Below are positions 19,874-52,181 of a DNA stretch of 64,000 nt, piece after piece (positions within the stretch are counted from its first letter, which is position 1; the number at the start of each line of letters is the position of its first letter). The stretch spans positions 2,356,001 to 2,420,000 of the forward strand of contig CP114119.1 in NCBI GenBank assembly GCA_029959195.1, written 5' to 3'. The position numbers and the translations under genes are program-made. The notes beneath the pieces were generated by a model. The model ran no database searches, had not been told where the DNA came from, and was given only the letters and a program-made list of their open reading frames with translations. This DNA comes from Dictyophora rubrovolvata (lineage: Eukaryota; Basidiomycota; Agaricomycetes; Phallales; Phallaceae).

Positions 19874-22112
19874 GACATGAACGCGAAAGATTCATACATT
19901 AATTTCTGTCGGTCGATCGTTATCTCCGGCGAGGCGATGTCACATACAGCACTTTCGCAGCTTGTCTCGGCGTCGTCGGTTGAACCAAGGCTTTCTCTGT
20001 CCGTAGCGAATACATCCAGTGCGCCATCGGCAAAGGAAGCAACTTAAACGAAGTATTACGATCAGCCAAAGGTCAAATTAGAATGCAAAGCCCACTAACC
20101 ATCGGTCCCGGATTCAACGACGACTGCCGGGCTGAAGGCCTTGAGGGCGGCTGTGATTGAGCAGCCCGCTGCTTCTGCAAACTGCTGTAATTTAGTATGA
20201 GTTCAACAGTGAATGATCTGTACTGCATACTTCATATACAACTTGGGTGTCGGTTGTATCTAGCATCGCCATGTGAACGTTCTTTGGCGAACGCTTCGAA
20301 TCCAATTTCTCAGATGCCTGCGACAAACGGAACCGATAAGAGACCTCACCATCAACAAATACGTTAGTAAGATATCATCATAATCATCGCTCTGTGTTAG
20401 GTTCAATATCATGTATGTCGATTTGATGTGCTGACTTACAACGTCGATCTCCTGGCCCGCCTCGTTGTCCTTTCCAGGGAGGAATTTGTTCCACCTCTTC
20501 AGATCGTTTGCTGTGCGGCTGGATCTCCCTCGCGAGGTTCCAGCACTGCCATGATTACTATCGTCCTTATCTCCAGCGCTCCCATCTTTCTTATCACTGT
20601 TACCCTTATCATTGCCGTTCCCGTCCTCTTTGCCCTCTCCATCTTCTCCATCCTCCTTATCCTCCTTGCTCTTCCCTTTCCCGTCTTTCTCGTCGTTGTC
20701 GTTGTCATCATAGTCGTCGTCTTCACCATAGTCATTGTCATCGTCGTCTTCCTCCTGCTTATCCGTTCTTTTGGCCCCCTTTGCTTCCTTCTTCAGGTCC
20801 ACATCCTTCAAGGGCTGATCCGGTTCATGGCGTCTGAAAGGCGCGGAAAGTAGTTCGGTCAGTCTCTTATCGTGCTTGAGCTTAAAACCGTCATAAAGAA
20901 TAGCTTGAGGGTTGACAAACGGAAGCTTGAAAGGGTATGAGAAATTTTCTTCCAAAATCCGGTCCTTCGTTGAGTCTGCTTTGTCACCTCCCGGTTCCAG
21001 CTGCTGCTTAGCGTCGCGCAGGAACTGTAACGGGTTTTGTGTGTCTATTGTGGGGGCCATCGTATAGGGGCGGAAATTCGATGGTCCAACGCGAGTGTAA
21101 GCTATCTCAGCTCCAGGGAAGAAACCCCACCTGGACTCAATTTGTGCTACATCTTTGACTCCTGAAGCGACCTCGAAGTGAAGACCGCGCGAAAGTTGAT
21201 CCCAGAATGCCCATGCCCATTCCTCTGCATGGGTAATGCGAAAGGGGAAGCGTACATTGGCCATAATCTCGTGTTTTGAGTACCCGTTCTTTTCTCCAGG
21301 TTCCAATATTAGCGGGAGATTCCTAATAATCCACAACTTATAATCTCTCTTGTGTAGCACACTCACAACGACGGCGTCACGGGGTTGAGAGATGAGTATG
21401 GCACCCTGATTTTGGGATTTCTCCACATTGACAGAACTGTTGGGACCGACTTTGAACCTACATGTTATACAGTAAGTCATTTGTTCGTAGAGAGTGTGAG
21501 GTCTTGACATACATGGGGGACATAACACGAAGCCTCATGGGTAATGCGAAAGGGGAAGCGTACATTGGCCATAATCTCGTGTTTTGAGTACCCGTTCTTT
21601 TCTCCAGGTTCCAATATTAGCGGGAGATTCCTAATAATCCACAACTTATAATCTCTCTTGTGTAGCACACTCACAACGACGGCGTCACGGGGTTGAGAGA
21701 TGAGTATGGCACCCTGATTTTGGGATTTCTCCACATTGACAGAACTGTTGGGACCGACTTTGAACCTACATGTTATACAGTAAGTCATTTGTTCGTAGAG
21801 AGTGTGAGGTCTTGACATACATGGGGGACATAACACGAAGCCTACACCTCCTTTAAAACTTTGTGAAGTTCCAGACACCACAGGACCGGGGGATTCCGTC
21901 CACATAATTTTATCCTCATTGATGGAGAAAGGTTTGAAGCCACTTGGGAGCTGGCACTCGGCCTTATAGGCATTGAGGGGGTCTATACGAGATACGTGGT
22001 ACTCGTAAGTCCGAGCTCCTCGTAGATAGCTATTATATAATCGAGTATCACGCAGCGTGTATATAGCTATTTTTTTCACCGTAGGCGCGTGCAGATGCCC
22101 GTGTGCGCCCAA
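19783..22112 (-). CDS. Unknown protein with long Asp/Glu/Lys-rich segment; carries a 308-bp internal duplication
   Basis: No family recognised. Start MGAHGHLHAPTVKKIAIYTL; a folded-looking region with RGARTYEYHVSRIDPLNAYK, ILISQPRDAVVVSVLHKRDY and EEWAWAFWDQLSRGLHFEV; then SNFRPYTMAPTIDTQNPLQF; a highly acidic stretch (about 20570-20790, Asp/Glu/Lys/Gly); and RWNKFLPGKDNEAG. Four C-terminal exons with good splice sites give SDDYDDILLTYLL, SEKLDSKRSPKNVHMAMLDT, QFAEAAGCSITAALKAFSPA and SFADGALDVFATDRESLGS. The reading frame closes at 19783, overlapping the SED5 relic by about 90 bases, so the true end may have been lost. A tandem duplication (see separate entry) interrupts the frame unless one copy is removed by splicing. 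Confidence 0.55.
21228..21843. repeat. Perfect 308-bp tandem duplication inside a gene
   Basis: Bases 21228-21535 are repeated as 21536-21843 with no difference that I can find by eye. The unit holds part of two exons of the acidic gene and the candidate intron between them. Because 308 is not a multiple of three, the second copy shifts the frame and leads to a stop if read through. The lack of divergence points to a very recent event or an assembly error. Confidence 0.9.
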
Positions 22113-38571: not shown

Positions 38572-40015
38572 ATGATTGACGATTCAACCCAGCTCGAGTC
38601 TGGTCTTCTGGCACATTTACCGTTTGCTACTTCAACGACGGAACGCGATGAACTTCCGACCAGTGCTCCTCCGCGAACAACGCAGCAACTCTTCTCGCCA
38701 ATAAGAACTCTGCGGGATGTTATCAAGTTCGTCTTTTGTCGGATGACAATGTGTGTGCGGCTGACATAGCTCTATTCTTTACAGAAACTTCTCTCCAGCA
38801 TGGTTCGCCATTAACATGGGTACGGGCGTTGTCAGCATCATATTCCACAGCTATCCATACGGCACACCTTCGAACGCGATGAACATATTATCATTAATAT
38901 TCTTTTTCCTTGATCTCATCCTTTTCGTTCTTTTTTTGTCGATGAGCGTCGCGCGATATGCCCTCTTTCCTGGCTCCTGGAGGGATATGCTTCGACATCC
39001 CGTCCAGAGTTTATATTTAGGCTGCTTTCCAATGGGCGCGGCTACATTAATAAACGTAGGATTAGGCACCGTTAATCAGCATTTTGCCGTTGGAGATACA
39101 AAATTTCTATATGCCCTTTGGGCGTTTTGGTGGCTTGATTCGTTGGTTTCATTTCTATGCTGCTTTGGAGTCGTCTATGTAATGTAAGAAGTTCTCTTTT
39201 GTCGATTGACGTGTGCTTTAATACGTCATCTAGGACCGTTCATCAGCGGCATTCCATGTCCACGCTTACCGCCATTTGGCTTCTTCCTGTAGTGCCCGTT
39301 ATCGTCGCAAGCACCACAGGCCAGCTTTTGACTTCAGCTCTCGCAGTTCATTCTATATCACATGCACATCTTACGATGGGTGTCTCGCTCCTCATGGTCG
39401 TCATTGGTCTCTCCCTCTCCTTCATGATACTTACCCTTTATCTTCGTCGGCTTATCATCGAGGGCCTGCCTGACGTGAATGCAATAATATCTTGCTTTCT
39501 TCCATTGGGGCCATGTGGTCAAGGAGGATACTCACTTCTGATCGCGGGTCTTAATGCTCAAAATTTGTTACCGAATGGACAGGGTTACATTCTTGGGGAT
39601 CCATTAGTTGGGCGAGCGATCAGTTTTATTTGTTTCGCTGGAGCTTGGATACTTTGGGCCATGGCTGTTTGGTGGCTTGGATGTGCTCTCTGCGCTATTG
39701 TTCACAATTTAGCGAGAGGAGAACGCATGCCTTTTACATTAGGTTTCTGGGGACTTGTCTTTCCAAATGTGGGTTCTTGAGCCAACAACTTGGACTTTCG
39801 TCGTCTAACTTTCCAAACAAAAACAGGGTGCAATGGCTCTATTAACAATACAACTCGGTACCGCGATGGATGCAGACTTCTTTCGTGTTCTTGGAGGTAT
39901 TCACGGTGCTGCTGTAATTCTCATGTGGGTGGTGCTTGTCGGCCCAACGCTCATTCGTGTTTGGGACCGAAGGATCTTTATTGCACCTTCAAGTCCAATG
40001 CCAGTCAAGGCATAG
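38572..40015 (+). CDS. SSU1/TehA-type transporter (sulfite efflux or C4-dicarboxylate, TDT family)
   Basis: Integral membrane protein with about ten transmembrane segments. After a polar N-terminus (residues 1-50) and an intron comes NFSPAWFAINMGTGVVSIIF, the TDT-family signature; then ILSLIFFFLDLILFVLFLS; the conserved HPVQSLYLGCFPMGAATLIN; and LWAFWWLDSLVSFLCCFGVV. The next exon has TAIWLLPVVPVIVASTTG, MGVSLLMVVIGLSLSFMI and FLPLGPCGQGGYSLLIAGLN, and RMPFTLGFWGLVFPN leads into the last exon LLTIQLGTAMDADFFRVLGG, ending at 40015. The pattern matches fungal Ssu1 sulfite pumps better than malate permeases, but substrate cannot be fixed from sequence alone. Confidence 0.85.
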
Positions 40016-40288: not shown

Positions 40289-43025
40289 ATGGCTGAGATA
40301 GCAGGTATTGCTATTACTATCCCTGGGATCCTTAGCGGGGCATGGACAGTATTGAAGGCTGCTTACGACCTGTATGGTAGTGTCGATCTGCGTAGAAACC
40401 AGATTCGAATTCTGTTGGGGAGGGCTAGCAATCTAATCACACAGATCGCACAACATTTGTCTCGTGAAGAGCAAGGACCGCCATCACCTAGAATGCAAGA
40501 GAACGCGAATAAGCTCCAAAGGCACGCTCTCGTTTCATTCGCTTTCTGTTGACTCGACTCAGGATTCAATCTTCCAGAACCTGCGAAGATCTGAAGGGGC
40601 TCCTTGAGAAACTCAAACTGAAAGGACTTTTATGGTGTATGATGCACACCGATAAGATCGACACAACTATTAATGATATTCAGTACCAAATAACAAATGC
40701 ATTCGAGATGTTTAACGTATGTGGTGTCGTCTGTTCTATCTCTAAAATATCAGATCTCATCTCGTAGAATCAGTTTGCCTGTCATCTCGATAGGGACAAC
40801 TTCCAAGTCGAAATGCGACAAGCCCGATATAACGATCAATCCGGGCTGATGAAGAAACTCCACGATTTATCTTCAAACGACGAAAGAATTCTAAATGCAA
40901 TACAAAATCAGGGTGGCATGCAAAAAAGAACAGAGGAGTTATTAATAGCCGTCCTTAAGGTATCTTCTAGTACCGTTCATTAACCAATCATGTGAGATTT
41001 AGTCTCCGTCAGTGCGTTGAAGGACGTGCTTCAGACAGATCTCCAGAAATGGAATTTCTCCGAAGCACAGGGAGCCTTTTACAACAGAGGTCGAAAAATA
41101 AACCATGGAGAATATCACAAGATTGGATCATAACCAGTTTTGAAGTCGACTTCGATGTAATCGACTCTATTGGCCAGGGTTCCTTCGGGAAAGTGTTTAT
41201 AGGTCAGTGGAATGCTGCTGTAAGTGAATTTTGTCTCTATTATATGAATGGTTCCTACCTAATTGAGAAGAGGGTCGCTATTAAACAAATGTACGCCGAT
41301 GATGCTCGTACCCTGACGGACAAAGATAGGAAGGTGAGGGGTCCTAACTTGCAGTGCACGGGAATTCAGAGTGTACAGGAGATTTCTTTAGGCAATGTAT
41401 AAGGAAGTTGAAATATGGTAAATGATCGGCTCATTCTCTGTGCATAACATCGACTTCTTCGCTCTTAAATACGTGACCTCCAGGACGAAACTACACCATC
41501 CTAACATCCTGAATCTTTATGGAGCTTGCTTAGAAGGGTCGCCGGTGAGCCTTTGGATCTCTTGGTGTCACATTGACAGTAAAAACACCTAAAAGCCTTT
41601 TCTTGTCATGCAATACTGTCCATTTGGAAACATACGCAATTATCTTCAAGCACATCCAGAGATGAACAGACTCAATTTGGTAGTCCTGATTTGGCACCCT
41701 GTTTCAAACTATAAGCTGATAGGGCCGATTTTAGTGTCATGATATCGTTGCGGGAATGAGTTATCTCCACAACAAAAATATAATACATACTGACTTGAAA
41801 GGCGTGAGCAACAATGCTAAATTCCCCGTTTCTCTTTCATACGCTCGCTCTTATATACTTGACAATTCCTTTAGGCTAATATTCTCGTGGATAATCAACG
41901 CAATGCCGTAGTCTCAGACTTCGGATTATCTCTAACTATAGACGGTATTCGTAGCCTGTCTAGTTTAACACGTGGTGCTGGCCCACGAGGAACCTTGCGC
42001 TGGATGGCACCAGAGTGTCTCGATGGTGACTCGCCAACTAAGGCTTCGGATGTATATAGTCTTGGTGTTACGATATGGGAGGTGAATATTGAATCTTTCA
42101 ACCTCTGTAAACAATTTGAGACTGAAATTATGCATGATAGATTTTTAAAGGAGAGAACCCTTTCCCCGCCATAGCTGATCGGCTTATCGTGTCCCATGTC
42201 GTAGATCGTCAACGACGTCCGGATCGCCCGCCTCTCTTGATAGAAGATGCTGTCTGGGAACTTGTACAAAAATGTTGGTCCATGATGCCGGATTTTCGCC
42301 CGTCCATGACTTCAGTACAGAGATCGTTGGAATCCTATTCTACGAGGCTTGGCCCCGGTAACGGTTCGAATACTCATTTGCTTGGTCCTGTCGCATCCAG
42401 CAATCCAGCAAAGCGGAAGTCTTCTATGGCGGCCACAATCAAAGAAAAATGGGACAGATCCCTACGGACACAAGAGCCTACATGGATACGGGGATCCCCC
42501 AGTTCATGCATCGACTCATTGACTATTCCAAAGCCACCAAGAGACAAAGTATATCAGTACCGTGTCGTCAAGGGTAACATCAACTTGGGAATCCGACATA
42601 TGTATGCTAATCCTGACGGCTCTCAAACTGTCGATCTACGTCGATATAACAGAGGTCGTGGCATTCATGAATCAAAGACTATTGAGGTGCACGCTGTGGA
42701 CTCGGATGATTGCACGCAGACTCTGGTGGCAAAGTGGGACGGTGCCGGGGAAAGCACTTACCGTGGCTGGGGCGACTGGGGGGATGGCGACAGTGCCTGG
42801 GGTAATGGGGATGGTGACAAAGCCTGGGGTAATGCGAAACGAGACAGTGCCTGGGATAATGGGAATGGTGACAGTGTCTGGGATAATGGGAATGGTGACA
42901 GTGCCTGGGGAGATGTGAAAGGTGACAGAGCCTGGGGTAATGGGGATGGTGACAAAGCCTGGGATAATGGGAAAAGAGACAGTGCCTGGGATAATGGGAA
43001 AAGAGACAGTGCCTGGGAATGGTGA
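40289..43025 (+). CDS. TKL-type protein kinase with MLKL-like N-terminal helical domain and repeat tail
   Basis: Residues 1-200 are helical: MAEIAGIAITIPGILSGAWT, RRNQIRILLGRASNLITQIA, ENANKLQRTCEDLKGLLEKL and TTINDIQYQITNAFEMFN. This resembles the four-helix N-terminal domain (MLKL/Cbl-N type) seen on fungal TKL kinases. The kinase domain is complete: IGQGSFGKVFIGQW glycine loop, RVAIKQMYADDA lysine, KLHHPNILNLYGACLEGSP, PFLVMQYCPFGNIRNYLQ, IIHTDLKGANILV catalytic Asp (His-Thr-Asp instead of His-Arg/Gly-Asp), SDFGLSL, RWMAPECLDGDSPTKASDVY and WELVQKCWSMMPDFRPSM. A beta-rich region (VYQYRVVKGNINLGIRHMYA) and nine-residue WGNGDGDKA-type repeats follow. Some ten introns. The stop at 43023-43025 lies inside the repeat array; the frame past it would otherwise go to 43116. 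Signalling in cell fate is inferred from the domain pair. Confidence 0.85.
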
Positions 43026-43050
43026 CAGAGCCTGGGGTAATGAGAATGGT
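42789..43050 (+). repeat. Coding minisatellite, 27-bp unit, ten copies
   Basis: Nine units of 27 bp and one of 19 bp, exactly 262 bp, each starting GACA(G/A)(T/A)GC and holding CTGGGG(T/A)AATG. The translation has a nine-residue period with one Trp per unit. Unit nine (43005-43023) is 8 bp short, which shifts the frame and creates the stop of the kinase gene. Such arrays expand and contract by slippage. Confidence 0.95.
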
Positions 43051-43437
43051 GACTGGGGGGATGGTGGCTGGGGGAAAGGGACAGTGTGGAAAAGCAGTGA
43101 CGGCGTTGGGGAGTAGGAATGATGGCTACAAGTCAGGATTTACTTATATAAGAATAAAAGGAACTATGTATGTAAAAACAAGTGTCATTGTGGACAACTC
43201 GAGCAAGGTTCCAGACCCTTACACTGTACACATGCAAGGGGTTTGGCGCACGCGGCGCCTCTAGTCATCTCTAGTTAGAACTCCGACGGAGTATTTGCCG
43301 GATCGGCTTGTCAGGTTTGCGTCAGGTACTATTTTCATCTCTGCAAGCGGGTACTCTGAGTTTTCAGGTAAATCCTTTTTTTTTTTTGAAGCTCTTTTCG
43401 TGCAAAGTTAGTCAAAACTCAGCACGATTCTCTTTTT
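43026..43437. other. Repeat remainder and spacer before the aminopeptidase gene
   Basis: The first 90 bases continue the Trp/Gly/Asn/Asp repeat pattern in another frame (to a TAG at 43114-43116). The rest is spacer and the likely promoter and leader of the aminopeptidase, with a T-rich tract at about 43377-43388. Confidence 0.45.
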
Positions 43438-46400
43438 ATGAAAATTCGGCTGAACCTATTCATTCCTCTGAGTCATACCGTGACTCGCCGATCGATCCGA
43501 ACTCAATTCAACTCCAAATTGCACACTTGCACCACGCGCACCATTACCACCATGTCGAATGCTGCTGCAGTTGATAATAATCCCTCGAAATTCAGACTTC
43601 CCATTAATGTCGTACCCAAGCATTATGATGTGCTCATAAAAACCGATCTGCAAGCTTTCAAGTTTGAAGGAATAACGAAAATTCAGTGCGAGAAATACCT
43701 GATATTTTTAATCGCCATCGTATTAATGTTGGTTTGATAGACTTGATGTCAAAGAGCCTACCTCTGCCATTACATTCAATTCATCTAACTTGTCTATCGA
43801 GAACGTGCGTCTTGCTTATTCAGAGTCTAACCTGAAAACAATCGACCTCGCGAATGTTTCGTTCGATGAGAAAATGGAGAGGGCTACAGTTGCACTTCCA
43901 GAGTCTCTCGCGCAAGGTTCTGAAATCCAATTAATTATCAAGCATTCTAGAGACTTAACGGATGAATTGATGGGTTTGTATTATCCGATTTGGACTGCTC
44001 ATCTCTCTCTTCTAACAAGGGTCATCGATAAGGTTACTATTACTCGACATACAAAGATGAAGGAAAGGAAAGGTGTTACGCTTTGACGCAATTTGAAGTT
44101 CGCAAACCCGGCTTTTTGTTTCGATTTTGTTTCAATGATCAACTTTAGGCTACTGCAGCTCGACGGGCGTTCCCGTGCTGGGATGAACCGATGCTCAAAG
44201 CTACCTTTGAAATTTCAATGATTTCAAGAAACGACACCGTCAATTTGTCGAACATGCCCGTCGAATTTGAATCTCCTGTTGCAAAGTCTGGGATTAATAC
44301 AGAATTATTCCACGATCAGGATCACGCAGACTGGAAATACACTCGATTTCAAGTTACACCCCTAGTAAGGAGTGTTGCCTGCATGCGCATATTTTTATTA
44401 AGGCTTATGCACTTAGATGTCCACGTATGTTGTAGCATTTGCCAACGGTGATTTCAAGTATCTTGAAAGTTCATACACGAGTACCCTGAGCGGCAAAACA
44501 CGACCACTGAGAATATACGGTATTACTCCTTTCGTCCCCGAGCCATACTTATTCACCCACCCACCTACTCAGCGACGAAGGATATAATTGACCAAGGCCA
44601 GGTATAAAGATTCATTTTCTCACTAGTCGAAACTTGCCTTAAGTTTGATTTTCAAGTTCGGCTTAGATGTCAAAGCTAAAGTTGTACCCCTCTATGAGCA
44701 AGCTTTTGAAATAGAATATGCTCTTCCAAAATTGGACACCATTGTAGTATGATATTAAAGTTTACCAAAATCACTCACGAGTATATGGCTAAAAGGTTTC
44801 AGGTTCACGATTTTGATGCCGGTGCTATGGAGAATTGGGTACTTGGGTGTCATATTGGGATGTTTTCCTTACTCACTTTGAGTAGGGTTTAATCACTGGT
44901 CGAACTGACGCGTTTCTTGTTGATCCAAAACGGGCCGATATCAGAAGCAAGCAAAGTATAGCAGAGACTCAAAGCCATGAAGTGCGTTTGTTGGACCCTA
45001 ACTGCATAAATCAAGCTTAATCGTTTCAGGTTGCACATATGTGTATGTTATTATTGTATTTAGTAGTCGCACAACTGGAACAAAACCTCCAGGGTTTGGG
45101 AATATCACTACAATGAAATGGTGGGATAATCTATGGCTTAATGAAGGTAAGATATCCCTCGTGTTCTTCACATTTATGTAAAATCCGACGTATCGTTGCA
45201 AGGATTTGCTACCCTCATGGGAGAAGTTATAATTCTTAATAAGTATAGATTTTCTTCTTCTTCGGGCTTGTTGAATATGGTTCATGTCGTCTAGGATGTT
45301 TCCCGAATGGAAAGTATACTCTAGCTTCTATAATGATCACACGAGTAGTGCTTTATCTCTTGATTCCACGCCTTCTTCACACCCTGTGCAAGTTGACGTT
45401 CCAAATGCGGATGACATAGGACAGGTATGTTACTATTCGAATTCATGAATTAGTTCGACATTTAGACTTGAACTAGATATTTGATGATCTTTCTTATTCC
45501 AAAGCCGCGTCCAGTATGCCTTTGTGATGCCAAGCATTATTATCATTTGTTTATTCTTTTCCTCAGTTCTCCGAATGCTCTCGGTGTACACCGGAGAAGA
45601 GAAATTTCTAAAGGGCGTGTCGCTTTACTTGAAAGCCCATTTATATGGAAATACAGTCGCAGACGATTTATGGTCTGGCATTCAGCAAGCTACAAGTAAG
45701 TTGAAGTATCTTTTTATGTCGATTCTCTGGGATGTTAAAATATTGACTTAATTAGACTTGCACATACCTGCATTGATGACAAATTGGATTTCACAGGCAC
45801 GCTCTTGTCTAATATTTGTTTACGTATGGAACTTACGTTGCCTCAGACAGGACACCCTGTCATAACCGTCAAAGAAACCGAGGATGGCATTCATATTCGA
45901 CAAGACCGCTACTTCAAAACAGGGGTAGCGAAAGAAGAAGATAACCAGACGATTTGGTATGTAACGTTTTGCGTAGTAGACTGATTGTTCGAAGTAATGT
46001 GGCATTTCAGGCATGTCCCGTTGAATACTCTAACAGTCACTCCTAATGGAGAGGCTTCAGTTGATAGACAGGCGCTACTCACCACTAGAGAAACAACCTA
46101 TAAACTAGACACTAAGCAATTGTGGAAGCTCAATCAAGGTGCCACTGGATTCTGTATGTAATTCAACTTATTTTTTTGTGTAACGGAAACTGACACATCA
46201 CCCCCTCAAAGATCGAGTTTTGTATAGTCCAGAACACTTGGCCAAATTAGGAGAAGAAGCCTCTCGAGCAGGCTCAGTTCTTTCTGTGGAAGATCGCCTT
46301 AGTCTGATCTCTGATGCTATGGCGCTCGCATCCTCTGGGCATGCATCCACTAGCAGTGCTTTAACCTTTATTGACCGTCTCCGTGGAGAACCTGAGTGTG

Positions 46401-49789: not shown

Positions 49790-52181
49790 TCTTGCCAACT
49801 TTTTCCCCCAGTCTGGTAAACGAGCTTGATGTAATGTATTTTTAGTTATTTATATACACGCCCATCTTTTACAGATTCTGATCCAGTGACCTGTGCGATG
49901 TACGATGCAGTGTATAGTTTACAATTCAAATGCGGAGTGACGTGAAATCTGAATTACGTTTTCAAGTCTCTCTGGGGACAATCCGCTTGAGAACTTGATC
50001 ATTGTTGTTGCTGTTACTGAACCTGGGACATCCTGACAAAATGTTGATGCTGCCACGAGATTGCTGTGCATATGGTACAACCTTGAGCGGAAATCGAATT
50101 ATGGAACAAAATATGCATTATTTCGCCAATAAATTAATAATCTGGTTGAGTATTGACGTGGAAAGGGATTTCAGCCGCATGCCACGGAAGTGCGAAGACG
50201 AAGAGAGGCTCAAAACGTTCCGTCTCATCAGCAGGTTCAATCCCAAGCGAAGAACCCGTCATGGTATCGAGCGGACCATGGGCAAAGCAAGCAAGCGAAA
50301 TGAAGGGCTAGACTCCATTGACAGCGTCCAATCGGTTGTCATACATTCAAAATGCAACGTTGAATTGATAAACGTCCGAGACAGGAGACTGACAGCGGAA
50401 AATATACGACCGTAATAGAGCGATAAAAACGGGAAAGATGATGAGACGGAGAAATTAGACAATAAGGACCGTAAAAAAGGAAGAAAACAATATGTAACAA
50501 AACGGATTTGATGTGTGTATGTATGAGTGTAATAATACAAGGACTTAGACGAAGGAGAGGAAAAGGAGAGGAGAGGAAAGAAATAAATGACGGATCAGGA
50601 GCAAAAGAAACAATGTATATAGAGTTTTTAAAGCGTGTAAAAAAAGTATAATAGTAAACCAGAGGAATGAGAAATCGAAAAAAAAGCTGAATGAAGTCAA
50701 GAAGGTAGAAAATAAAGAAGAAAAACCGAGAAGTGGAAGGACAAGTCTAATTGTGGATGTTCGGGAAGGGTAGAATGCCGTCTGTCATACCGTCCTACTA
50801 TTACTGCATCGCATCGTATCACACCAGGCGGGCCATTACCAACGGGCGACGGAATGGACAATGAAGCTTGAGAACGAGACCTCCCTATTTTTTTTGCATC
50901 TTCTAAATAAACAACCCAGGAATGGAAGAAAAGAGGATTCGGATTTGAGCCCAAGAAAAAGTTTTTATGATACGAAGAACCACCGCTTGCTATCAAGAAA
51001 GAGGAATAAAAAAAGGACGTGACAGCAAGTGTGATAGCAAAAGAAATTAATAGACGAGTCAGATGGACAGGGGCGTTTCATACGATGTGAGGAATAAAAC
51101 GTCAAAAAGGAAAGACAATCCAAACCAAGGTAAGACAGGAAACCGATGGTGAATAAAGGCGGCGAAATGGTTGGATGTAATTTACACCCGCACGAGGAAA
51201 TCGTCATTTCGATGGTCGTGCTCTAACCGCAACTGGGACGACATCCAACACGATCACCGAAAGAAAAGAGAAGGGGGGGGGGAAACGGCCAGATACACCA
51301 TCCATCATCCATTGATTTGATACAAGAAGAGTGAGGAGAAGCAATGTCACGATCCCGCCACCTTTTTTTTCGCGGCTAGCTTTTTTGAATATAACAATAA
51401 GAGGGAGATGTATAAGGGTCGAGCCGTCGTTATGGTTGCTCCATGCAGAAGAGTATTAACCGACCGAGCGAGGACAAAGTACCAGTAGCATCAGTAAGAC
51501 GGTAGTTGAAAGGGGGTAGGCGATGAGAGGAGCCTCTTCTAATACATTGAGAGGCGATAGAGAGATGAGAGAGAGACAACAGGTGAAAAGAAACGTCGGT
51601 CGTTGTTGCGATGCAAAAGATGAATGGTGACGATTAGTAGTAGAGAGGCTGATAAAGAGACAGTGGGATATTGCAAGGATGACAGAGAAGAATGTAGGCG
51701 AGGAAGGAACGAAGAGGGTTCATGTTGTGTGTATGTAGCCTTGTGAACACGGGGAAAGGGGTAAGGGGCATGATTTTGAGAGGGAGTGTGTAGTTATGGA
51801 TGATGGCCCTTCCTTTTCATCGACATGGTCAAAGAAAAGGGAAGGTATGGATGGATGTGCGAGATGAAACAGAAAAGAAAAATCGAGTAATACAATAGAT
51901 AAGGAAATAGGAGCCCGAGACAAGCGAGAACGACGAGACAGACAGAGACAGACAAAAAATACACGATAGGGACATGTCCAAATCGTGACGTAGGCGTGGG
52001 TGTATAGGAGAATGAGAGAAGCGCGAGAAAAGAATTTGTCGATGCGGGACGTGAAGTACGTATACGTGCTAGTCAATAGTGACTAGTGGTGACCGAGACG
52101 GGGATGAGACAGAAGGAAAGTTCCAGAAGGAAAATAAAACCAGGCAGGAGACAGTACAACGAGCCAGGAAAAAAGAGACCT
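49790..52181. other. Long non-coding interval, purine-rich on the + strand in its right part
   Basis: About 2.4 kb without a supported gene. From about 50420 to 52180 the + strand is strikingly rich in A and G (GAAGGAG, GAGAGAGAC and similar runs), so the minus strand is a pyrimidine-rich tract directly behind the stop of the ankyrin-CCCH gene; a long 3' untranslated region is possible. The 137-codon frame 50002-50415 (+) has no coding character that I trust. Confidence 0.45.

What the first reader, a model, noticed from the sequence alone, without database searches (positions are those of the whole stretch)
40289..43116. TKL kinase with MLKL-like helical N-terminus and a Trp/Asn/Gly/Asp repeat tail
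The domain order (four-helix-like domain, complete kinase, beta-rich region, nine-residue tandem repeats) parallels animal MLKL and fungal HeLo-like cell-death executors, where a helical bundle is switched by an attached module. Here the kinase keeps its Lys, catalytic Asp and DFG Asp, so it may be an active signalling enzyme. The HTD instead of HRD/HGD is unusual. The repeat tail, one Trp per nine residues with Asn/Gly/Asp, could drive self-assembly. Helical match and function are inference; I did not compare it with any database.
Basis: partly seen in the sequence, partly recalled or inferred. Interest (0 to 1): 0.72.

Follow-up and report, generated by a model that had tools for sequence, protein, structure and literature searches.

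The report
Fungal kinase fused to FIP lectin
A fungal gene joins a helical front part and a probably active signalling kinase to a copy of the mushroom "immunomodulatory protein" (FIP) sugar-binding module, which hints that a protein known mainly for its effects on mammalian immune cells may work inside fungi as the sensor of a kinase.

Summary
I splice 11 exons (40289-43025, +; 726 aa). The "beta-rich region" is a fungal immunomodulatory protein domain (Pfam Fve PF09259, aa 544-631, 70.3 bits, cut-off 25; 45 of 89 aligned residues identical to FIP-nha). It shares one uninterrupted open frame with the kinase C-lobe, so the fusion needs no splice guess. The kinase keeps Lys267, Asp360, Asn365 and DFG Asp378; HRD is HTD. 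A second gene of the same build (contig C4) has HAD, lacks the Trp tail, and ends right after its FIP. These are the only two Fve matches found in this 28.2-Mb genome. Between the copies, N-terminus and kinase show purifying selection (dN/dS 0.24, 0.28); the FIP is looser (0.60, not distinguishable from 1). The Trp tail is a locus-specific 27-base minisatellite whose ninth unit breaks the frame, so the protein ends at 43025, not 43116. An MLKL-like N-terminus is not supported by Pfam, PDB or profile comparison; helicity of exon 1 is. Best reading: a FIP-lectin sensor kinase, laid out like fungal recognition proteins with a C-terminal lectin fold. I saw no FIP-kinase fusion in the literature searched; InterPro and UniProt were not available.

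The parts
40289..40521 (+). exon 1: start codon and helical N-terminus, aa 1-78 (hydrophobic stretch at aa 4-22)
   Evidence: AF2 single-sequence model of 77 residues, helix 11-61 and 67-76, mean pLDDT 76.3; most hydrophobic 19-residue window of the protein
40522..40562 (+). intron 1, 41 nt, GC-AG type, same site in the sister gene (38 nt)
40563..40716 (+). exon 2, N-terminal domain
40768..40959 (+). exon 3, end of N-terminal domain (aa 193)
41013..41219 (+). exon 4, linker and kinase glycine loop GQGSFG (from aa 247)
41271..41333 (+). exon 5, VAIK Lys267
41392..41417 (+). exon 6, alpha-C region (AMYKEVEIW)
   Evidence: this acceptor is present in both copies, the one first used is not
41484..41544 (+). 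exon 7, kinase
41596..41679 (+). exon 8, kinase
41735..41803 (+). exon 9, catalytic loop HTD (Asp360)
41875..42081 (+). exon 10, DFG (Asp378), activation segment, APE
42141..43025 (+). exon 11: kinase C-lobe, linker, FIP/Fve domain and Trp repeat tail in one open frame, stop TGA 43023-43025
42420..42740 (+). FIP (Fve) domain with the helix-like stretch before it (Pfam match aa 544-631 = 42474-42737)
   Evidence: Pfam 70.3 bits (place); PDB FIP-nha E 4.7e-23, LZ-8 1.9e-19, FIP-fve 7.5e-19
42786..43025 (+). 27-base / 9-residue Trp repeat tail: 8 whole units (42786-43001) and a partial ninth

Best explanation
A probably active tyrosine-kinase-like (TKL) kinase, most likely intracellular, whose C-terminal FIP domain is a lectin-type sensor and dimerisation module. 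Ligand binding by the FIP beta-sandwich (a glycan or a non-self protein) and pairing through the FIP helix would bring two kinases together for trans-phosphorylation; the signal would pass to, or be carried out by, the helical N-terminal domain. Shown here: the fusion, an intact catalytic set, identity at 5 of the 6 glycan residues described for FIP-fve (the sixth is Ser for Thr), an amphipathic stretch with the LZ-8 dimer residues W12 and D45 kept (L10 not), and purifying selection on N-terminus and kinase. Inferred: that the FIP senses anything, that it dimerises in this context, where the protein sits, the direction of signalling, and a role in non-self recognition or regulated cell death. 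The Trp tail is most likely a minisatellite add-on, not the switch.
For: Fusion read in one exon. FIP identity. The same architecture in a dispersed second copy, where the FIP is the C-terminus. Only these two Fve matches were found in the genome, exon by exon, at E up to 10. Selection: dN/dS 0.24 N-terminus, 0.28 kinase, 0.60 FIP. [quoted passage not shown] FIP dimerisation by helix swapping and glycan residues (PMC4962085 and PMC7461872, passages); Fve fused as a presumed carbohydrate-binding anchor to a bacterial P47 protein (PMC7020563, passages).
Against: No expression or protein data. The FIP dN/dS is not significantly below 1 (Fisher p 0.15), so constraint on it in one or both copies is not proven. 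Its glycan residues may be kept for structure alone. Location is assumed: no signal-peptide or membrane predictor was run, and the N-terminal hydropathy peak (mean Kyte-Doolittle 1.78 over aa 4-22, 1.88 in the sister) is above the 1.6 often used for membrane segments (recalled), so a membrane anchor is not excluded. The N-terminal domain has no identified family. The window FIP has more derived sites than the sister FIP (7 against 3, 10 not placed, p 0.34): not significant, and decay would look the same as adaptation. The single-sequence model of the FIP and tail was of too low confidence to use (mean pLDDT 39.3).
Confidence: 0.42

Rival explanations
1. Built: an MLKL/HeLo-like executor whose N-terminal bundle perforates membranes when the kinase is switched, with the FIP as its sensor.
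For: Domain order; helical exon 1 with the most hydrophobic stretch of the protein at the N-terminus; basidiomycete MLKL-like domains are abundant (PMC9815663, passages) and some HELL domains sit on kinase or pseudokinase proteins (PMC12881547, passages).
Against: No Pfam match to MLKL_N, HeLo or related families for either copy; the PDB search finds no MLKL or HeLo; hhalign 0.1% against the genome's own MLKL_N protein; MLKL is a pseudokinase (PMC12881547, passages) while this kinase keeps its catalytic residues.
Confidence: 0.2
2. An ordinary Agaricomycete-type TKL kinase in which the FIP is only a dimerisation clamp, with no ligand.
For: FIPs dimerise through the helix and first strand, and dimer residues W12 and D45 of LZ-8 are kept here (PMC7461872 passages).
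Against: The sugar-site residues are kept as well (5 of 6 identical); the LZ-8 interface residue L10 is not kept; a clamp alone does not need the beta-sandwich pocket.
Confidence: 0.22
3. The window copy is a decaying duplicate: relaxed FIP, expanded minisatellite, frame break in the tail; the sister gene is the working one.
For: Fve score 70.3 bits here against 94.1 in the sister; more derived FIP sites here, 7 against 3; tail frame break; tail absent from the sister's coding sequence.
Against: With the introns removed no stop codon or frame break occurs before the tail in 11 exons; N-terminus and kinase show purifying selection over the pair (p 1.4e-6 and 1.9e-7), though a two-sequence ratio cannot say which copy.
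Confidence: 0.13

Closest known systems
Fve-type fungal immunomodulatory proteins (FIP-nha, FIP-ach, LZ-8, FIP-fve; Pfam PF09259)
   Same: 45 of 89 aligned residues identical to FIP-nha and 41 of 89 to FIP-ach; alignable to LZ-8 including W12; glycan residues 5 of 6 identical
   Different: Fve-type FIPs are described in general as small proteins of 110-125 aa (PMC7461872 abstract); here the domain is the C-terminal part of a kinase and, in the window copy, is followed by a Trp repeat tail
Agaricomycete TKL-like kinases, including the FslK lineage (PMC3937382)
   Same: PK_Tyr_Ser-Thr domain, catalytic residues present, DLKGAN in place of the tyrosine-kinase motif DL(R/A)A(A/R)N; another kinase of this genome has HGDLKGANILV
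   Different: HTD/HAD in the catalytic loop; FIP fusion; in PMC3937382 only 16 of 241 FslK members have any extra domain. Placement by tree was not done here
het-B BH protein of Podospora anserina (HET domain plus C-terminal lectin fold; PMC10890737 passages)
   Same: Effector or signalling part in front, C-terminal lectin-type beta-sandwich behind, C-terminal domain less conserved than the domains before it
   Different: HET/TIR-like domain instead of kinase; fruiting-body lectin fold instead of FIP; there the comparison is between alleles and recognition is demonstrated, here between duplicate genes and recognition is only inferred
MLKL and fungal HeLo-like / BaMLKL proteins
   Same: Helical N-terminus (exon 1) ahead of a kinase-type domain
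   Different: No sequence support for homology of the N-terminus; catalytic residues present; additional FIP domain

Membership tests
Fve-type FIP domain (PF09259) | Score above the curated Pfam cut-off (25 bits) | tested here: met
   70.3 bits window copy, 94.1 bits sister copy
Fve-type FIP domain (PF09259) | N-terminal amphipathic dimerisation helix before the FNIII sandwich | tested here: inconclusive
   Helical moment of aa 526-541 reached by 111 of 2000 shuffles; W12 and D45 of LZ-8 aligned and kept, L10 not; the Pfam match starts at profile position 21, after the helix
Fve-type FIP domain (PF09259) | Glycan residues W24, T28, D34, T90, I91, W111 of FIP-fve (PMC4962085, passages) | tested here: met
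   W, S, D, T, I, W: five identical, one conservative. The first three are aligned to FIP-fve itself; the last three rest on alignment to FIP-nha and FIP-ach
Fve-type FIP as a protein | Small protein of 110-125 aa | tested here: not met
   Fused to a kinase; in the window copy in one open frame, in the sister across a predicted intron
Fve-type FIP as a protein | Homodimer or tetramer in solution | not testable with these tools
   Needs purified protein
TKL-like active protein kinase | VAIK Lys, HxD Asp, Asn, DFG Asp present | tested here: met
   K267, D360, N365, D378; 205.5 bits PK_Tyr_Ser-Thr
FslK lineage | Position in a kinase tree | not tested
   No set of fungal kinases on hand beyond this genome
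MLKL | N-terminal domain of the MLKL_N family (PF22215) | tested here: not met
   No MLKL_N hit at E up to 10 for either copy; searching the genome with PF22215 gives one match, in a different gene
MLKL | Pseudokinase | tested here: not met
   Catalytic residues present
BaMLKL / HeLo-like | Four-helix bundle | tested here: inconclusive
   Only exon 1 was folded, from a single sequence: helical, pLDDT 76.3. Of six N-terminal segments one has a clear helical moment
BaMLKL / HeLo-like | CDD MLKL_NTD profile match | not testable with these tools
   CDD not on hand

The most novel reading that the evidence does not exclude
FIPs, studied since LZ-8 for their action on mammalian cells and without a native role in any passage that I saw, are the recognition modules of a fungal intracellular immune or allorecognition receptor: FIP senses a non-self glycan or protein, a kinase without the HRD arginine transduces, and a helical N-terminal domain kills or signals, all on one chain.
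Probability: 0.17. Interest if true: 0.82.

Novelty: new variant of a known kind. Interest (0 to 1): 0.6.

Why it matters
[quoted passage not shown] In the passages that I saw of six FIP papers (PMC7461872, PMC9791630, PMC7649207, PMC5173029, PMC4962085, PMC4129116) none gave them a job in the fungus; the review PMC7461872 holds none of the terms 'physiological', 'biological role', 'natural function' or 'role in the fung'. A kinase that carries a FIP as its own C-terminal domain makes that question testable: find the ligand of the domain, then ask whether it switches the kinase. It would also add FIPs to the lectin folds that fungi use behind signalling or death domains.

Tried and rejected
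Tail as a prion-like or self-assembly module: the single-sequence model of the end of exon 11 showed no regular structure in the tail, but its confidence was too low to count (mean pLDDT 39.3). The unit occurs nowhere else in the genome within 3 mismatches (7 hits, all in this array). Among 8 units codon changes are 2 synonymous against 19 non-synonymous (random single changes: 16 against 63), so I see no sign of coding constraint. The sister gene has an 18-of-21 match to the unit after its stop codon (score reached by 0 of 2000 shuffles, whose best was one point lower, and by 0 of 159 other stretches), so the array probably grew from, or shrank to, a seed in the common ancestor.

MLKL homology: Pfam with E up to 10 (the sister gave three chance-level families, E 0.024 to 0.2), PDB, the genome's own MLKL_N gene on C7 and the PigL_N family (0 matches) gave no support. 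A profile of the two N-termini against open frames of 40 other kinase loci gave nothing below E 1.1.

The first splice model (722 aa) was replaced by the 726-aa model, because the first exon 6 acceptor is lost in the sister gene while an acceptor 12 bases upstream exists in both. The dN/dS table was made with the shorter exon 6 in both copies and was not redone. In that table the 42-codon linker before the kinase has dN/dS 1.35 (2 synonymous, 10 non-synonymous changes) and the 22 comparable codons between kinase and FIP 0.33. The sister gene's last intron is uncertain: two donor/acceptor pairs keep the frame (one used, one noted by eye on the sequence).

The degenerate pattern for H-x-D-L-K/R-G-x-N failed, with 2 hits against 1 in the control, since introns split the motif in this gene. 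HxD counts come: 40 loci chosen by me from the 135 Pfam matches (high-scoring and covering the catalytic loop; window, sister and two near-duplicates left out); motif read in 35, not read in 5; four extra matches in other frames set aside.

Literature: 10 searches. Those on FIPs with kinases, domain architecture or PF09259 found 0, 3, 18, 7 (6 listed) and 2 papers; I saw their listings and passages of some, not all, and no FIP-kinase fusion in them. The library holds open-licence PMC papers only. Papers opened were seen as passages by search term, except PMC3937382 (outline, first part of section 4, section 9) and PMC12881547 (passages and section 18). PMC4790977 is not held. The tie of kinases without the HRD arginine to innate immunity was seen only as a search listing and otherwise is recalled.

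Scanning bacterial genomes for Fve fusions was not done, because the one case seen in print lies in a cluster with an insecticidal toxin gene.
Full report
WHAT IS THERE. The window lies in a 28.2-Mb genome of 11 contigs (G000, contig C3:2356001-2420000); I take it for a basidiomycete by gene structure and content (inference; no species name was available). At 40289 an ATG opens a gene that I splice into 11 exons ending with the stop codon at 43023-43025, 726 residues. Introns are 41-71 bases; the first is of the GC-AG type, the other nine GT-AG. The neighbours are a SLAC1-family transporter (ORF 39157-39780; Pfam 135.8 bits) and a probable M1 aminopeptidase (Peptidase_M1_N on ORF 44191-44451, 22.8 bits, below its cut-off of 25.8); I see no sign of a functional gene cluster in these two.

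THE PART THAT WAS MISSED. The beta-rich region behind the kinase is a fungal immunomodulatory protein domain: Pfam Fve (PF09259), aa 544-631, 70.3 bits, cut-off 25 (first seen). By sequence against the PDB it matches FIP-nha (E 4.7e-23), FIP-ach (5.6e-21), LZ-8 (1.9e-19) and FIP-fve (7.5e-19). Identity to FIP-nha is 45 of 89 aligned residues. Kinase C-lobe and FIP lie in one exon in one open frame (ORF 42189-43025), so the fusion does not depend on the splice model.

A SECOND GENE. The same genome holds one close relative on contig C4 (matches at 1284034-1286656), fetched as L017 and spliced to 649 aa. It has the same order: N-terminal domain, kinase (199.9 bits), FIP (94.1 bits). Over 620 aligned codons 527 residues are identical. 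It ends with ...LVAKWEK, directly after the FIP; it has no Trp tail in its coding sequence. In it the FIP follows the kinase across a predicted intron whose ends are uncertain. By blastn the similarity of the two loci begins about 30 bases before the start codon and stops near the end of the FIP, which reads as a dispersed single-gene duplication. A family search found only these two Fve matches in the genome, and the N-terminal domain has no third copy at E up to 1. For the C-lobe half of the kinase, the next matches are at 30-49% identity (6 rows at 4 to 5 other loci, E 4.9e-6 to 6.2e-4).

SELECTION. With a simple counting method (NG86-type), dN/dS between the copies is 0.34 overall, 0.24 in the N-terminal domain, 0.28 in the kinase and 0.60 in the FIP; the 42-codon linker before the kinase has 1.35. 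Fisher tests of synonymous against non-synonymous change give 3.9e-12, 1.4e-6, 1.9e-7 and 0.15 for the first four. N-terminus and kinase are therefore constrained; for the FIP constraint is not proven from two sequences. Using FIP-nha and FIP-ach as outsiders, 7 differing FIP sites are derived in the window copy, 3 in the sister, 10 cannot be placed (p 0.34).

KINASE. Lys267, Asp360, Asn365 and DFG Asp378 are present. The arginine of HRD is Thr here and Ala in the sister. In 40 other kinase loci of this genome, the motif could be read in 35: 26 HRD, 9 others (3 HGD, 2 HCD, 2 HLD, 1 HHD, 1 HAD), no HTD. The motif DLKGAN is not that of tyrosine kinases (PMC3937382, section 4).

FIP FUNCTION SITES. 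PMC4962085 (passages) lists W24, T28, D34, T90, I91, W111 as glycan residues of FIP-fve; here they are W, S, D, T, I, W, the first three by direct alignment to FIP-fve, the last three through FIP-nha and FIP-ach. PMC7461872 (passages) names L10, W12 and D45 at the LZ-8 dimer interface; W12 and D45 are kept, L10 is not. The stretch before the sandwich (aa 526-541) has a helical moment reached by 111 of 2000 shuffles.

N-TERMINAL DOMAIN. Exon 1 alone, folded from a single sequence, is helical (residues 11-61 and 67-76, mean pLDDT 76.3). The protein's most hydrophobic 19 residues lie at aa 4-22 (mean Kyte-Doolittle 1.78; 1.88 at aa 1-19 of the sister), a level at which a membrane segment is possible. 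Of six N-terminal segments tested for amphipathic helicity, one stands out (107-129, 5 of 2000 shuffles), the first is borderline (95 of 2000), the other four are not unusual. No Pfam family matches the window N-terminus at E up to 10, and only three chance-level families match the sister's. The six PDB matches are unrelated proteins (E 0.47 and worse). The genome has a different gene that does match MLKL_N (30.2 bits; 25.6, cut-off 27); hhalign between it and our N-termini gives probability 0.1%. MLKL/HeLo homology is thus neither shown nor excluded.

TAIL. The 27-base unit is repeated 8 times in frame from 42786 to 43001, with a ninth unit of 19 bases that breaks the frame and leads to the stop at 43023-43025. 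The bases to 43116 continue the repeat in another frame. The unit is found only here in the genome (7 matches within 3 mismatches, all in this array). Among the 8 units codon changes are 2 synonymous and 19 non-synonymous, and the consensus repeat is open in a second forward frame too, so openness is no evidence of use. After the stop codon of the sister gene lies an 18-of-21 match to the unit. I read the tail as a minisatellite that became C-terminal coding sequence in this copy.

HOW IT PROBABLY WORKS. The protein has a module that in its free form binds sugars and dimerises, fixed behind an intact kinase. The simplest mechanism is ligand- or pairing-induced kinase activation, with the helical N-terminal domain as output or partner-binding part. 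In Podospora het-B a C-terminal lectin fold behind a HET domain decides recognition specificity and is more divergent than the domains before it (PMC10890737, passages); the present gene has a lectin-type C-terminal domain that is likewise less conserved between copies than N-terminus and kinase (78 of 100, 168 of 191 and 232 of 265 residues identical). A bacterial precedent for Fve as a fused presumed carbohydrate-binding anchor exists (PMC7020563, passages). These are parallels, not tests.

NOVELTY. Kinase and FIP each belong to a known family; the N-terminal domain could not be assigned. The combination FIP plus kinase was not met in the searches made for it (listings and passages), and Fve-type FIPs are described in general as proteins of 110-125 aa (PMC7461872 abstract). 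InterPro and UniProt architectures could not be checked, so relatives may be annotated there without a paper.

Noticed in passing
window 21228-21843: A 308-base perfect tandem duplication (2.0 copies, 100% identical) inside overlapping minus-strand ORFs 20260-21528 and 21477-22112 without Pfam match at E up to 0.01: a very recent duplication or an assembly artefact.
   Followed up: partly
window 50001-52000: Strong purine bias of the + strand (GC skew 0.27, AT skew 0.30) over 2 kb, with one ORF of 130 aa or more starting in it (50002-50415, not tested for a family); function unknown.
   Followed up: partly
G000 C7:1321243-1321575 (L025): Another gene of this genome (open frame 921 aa) matches Pfam MLKL_N at about its cut-off; its first 696 aa, the part fetched, carry no kinase match.
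   Followed up: partly
PDB chains of Vip4, residues 677-739: The sister gene's FIP domain weakly matches the C-terminal part of a bacterial Vip4 protein (E 2.7e-4; 0.066 for the window copy), perhaps a distant Fve-like fold.
   Followed up: no
window 40522-40562: A GC-AG intron of only 41 bases (38 in the sister gene), conserved in place in both copies.
   Followed up: partly
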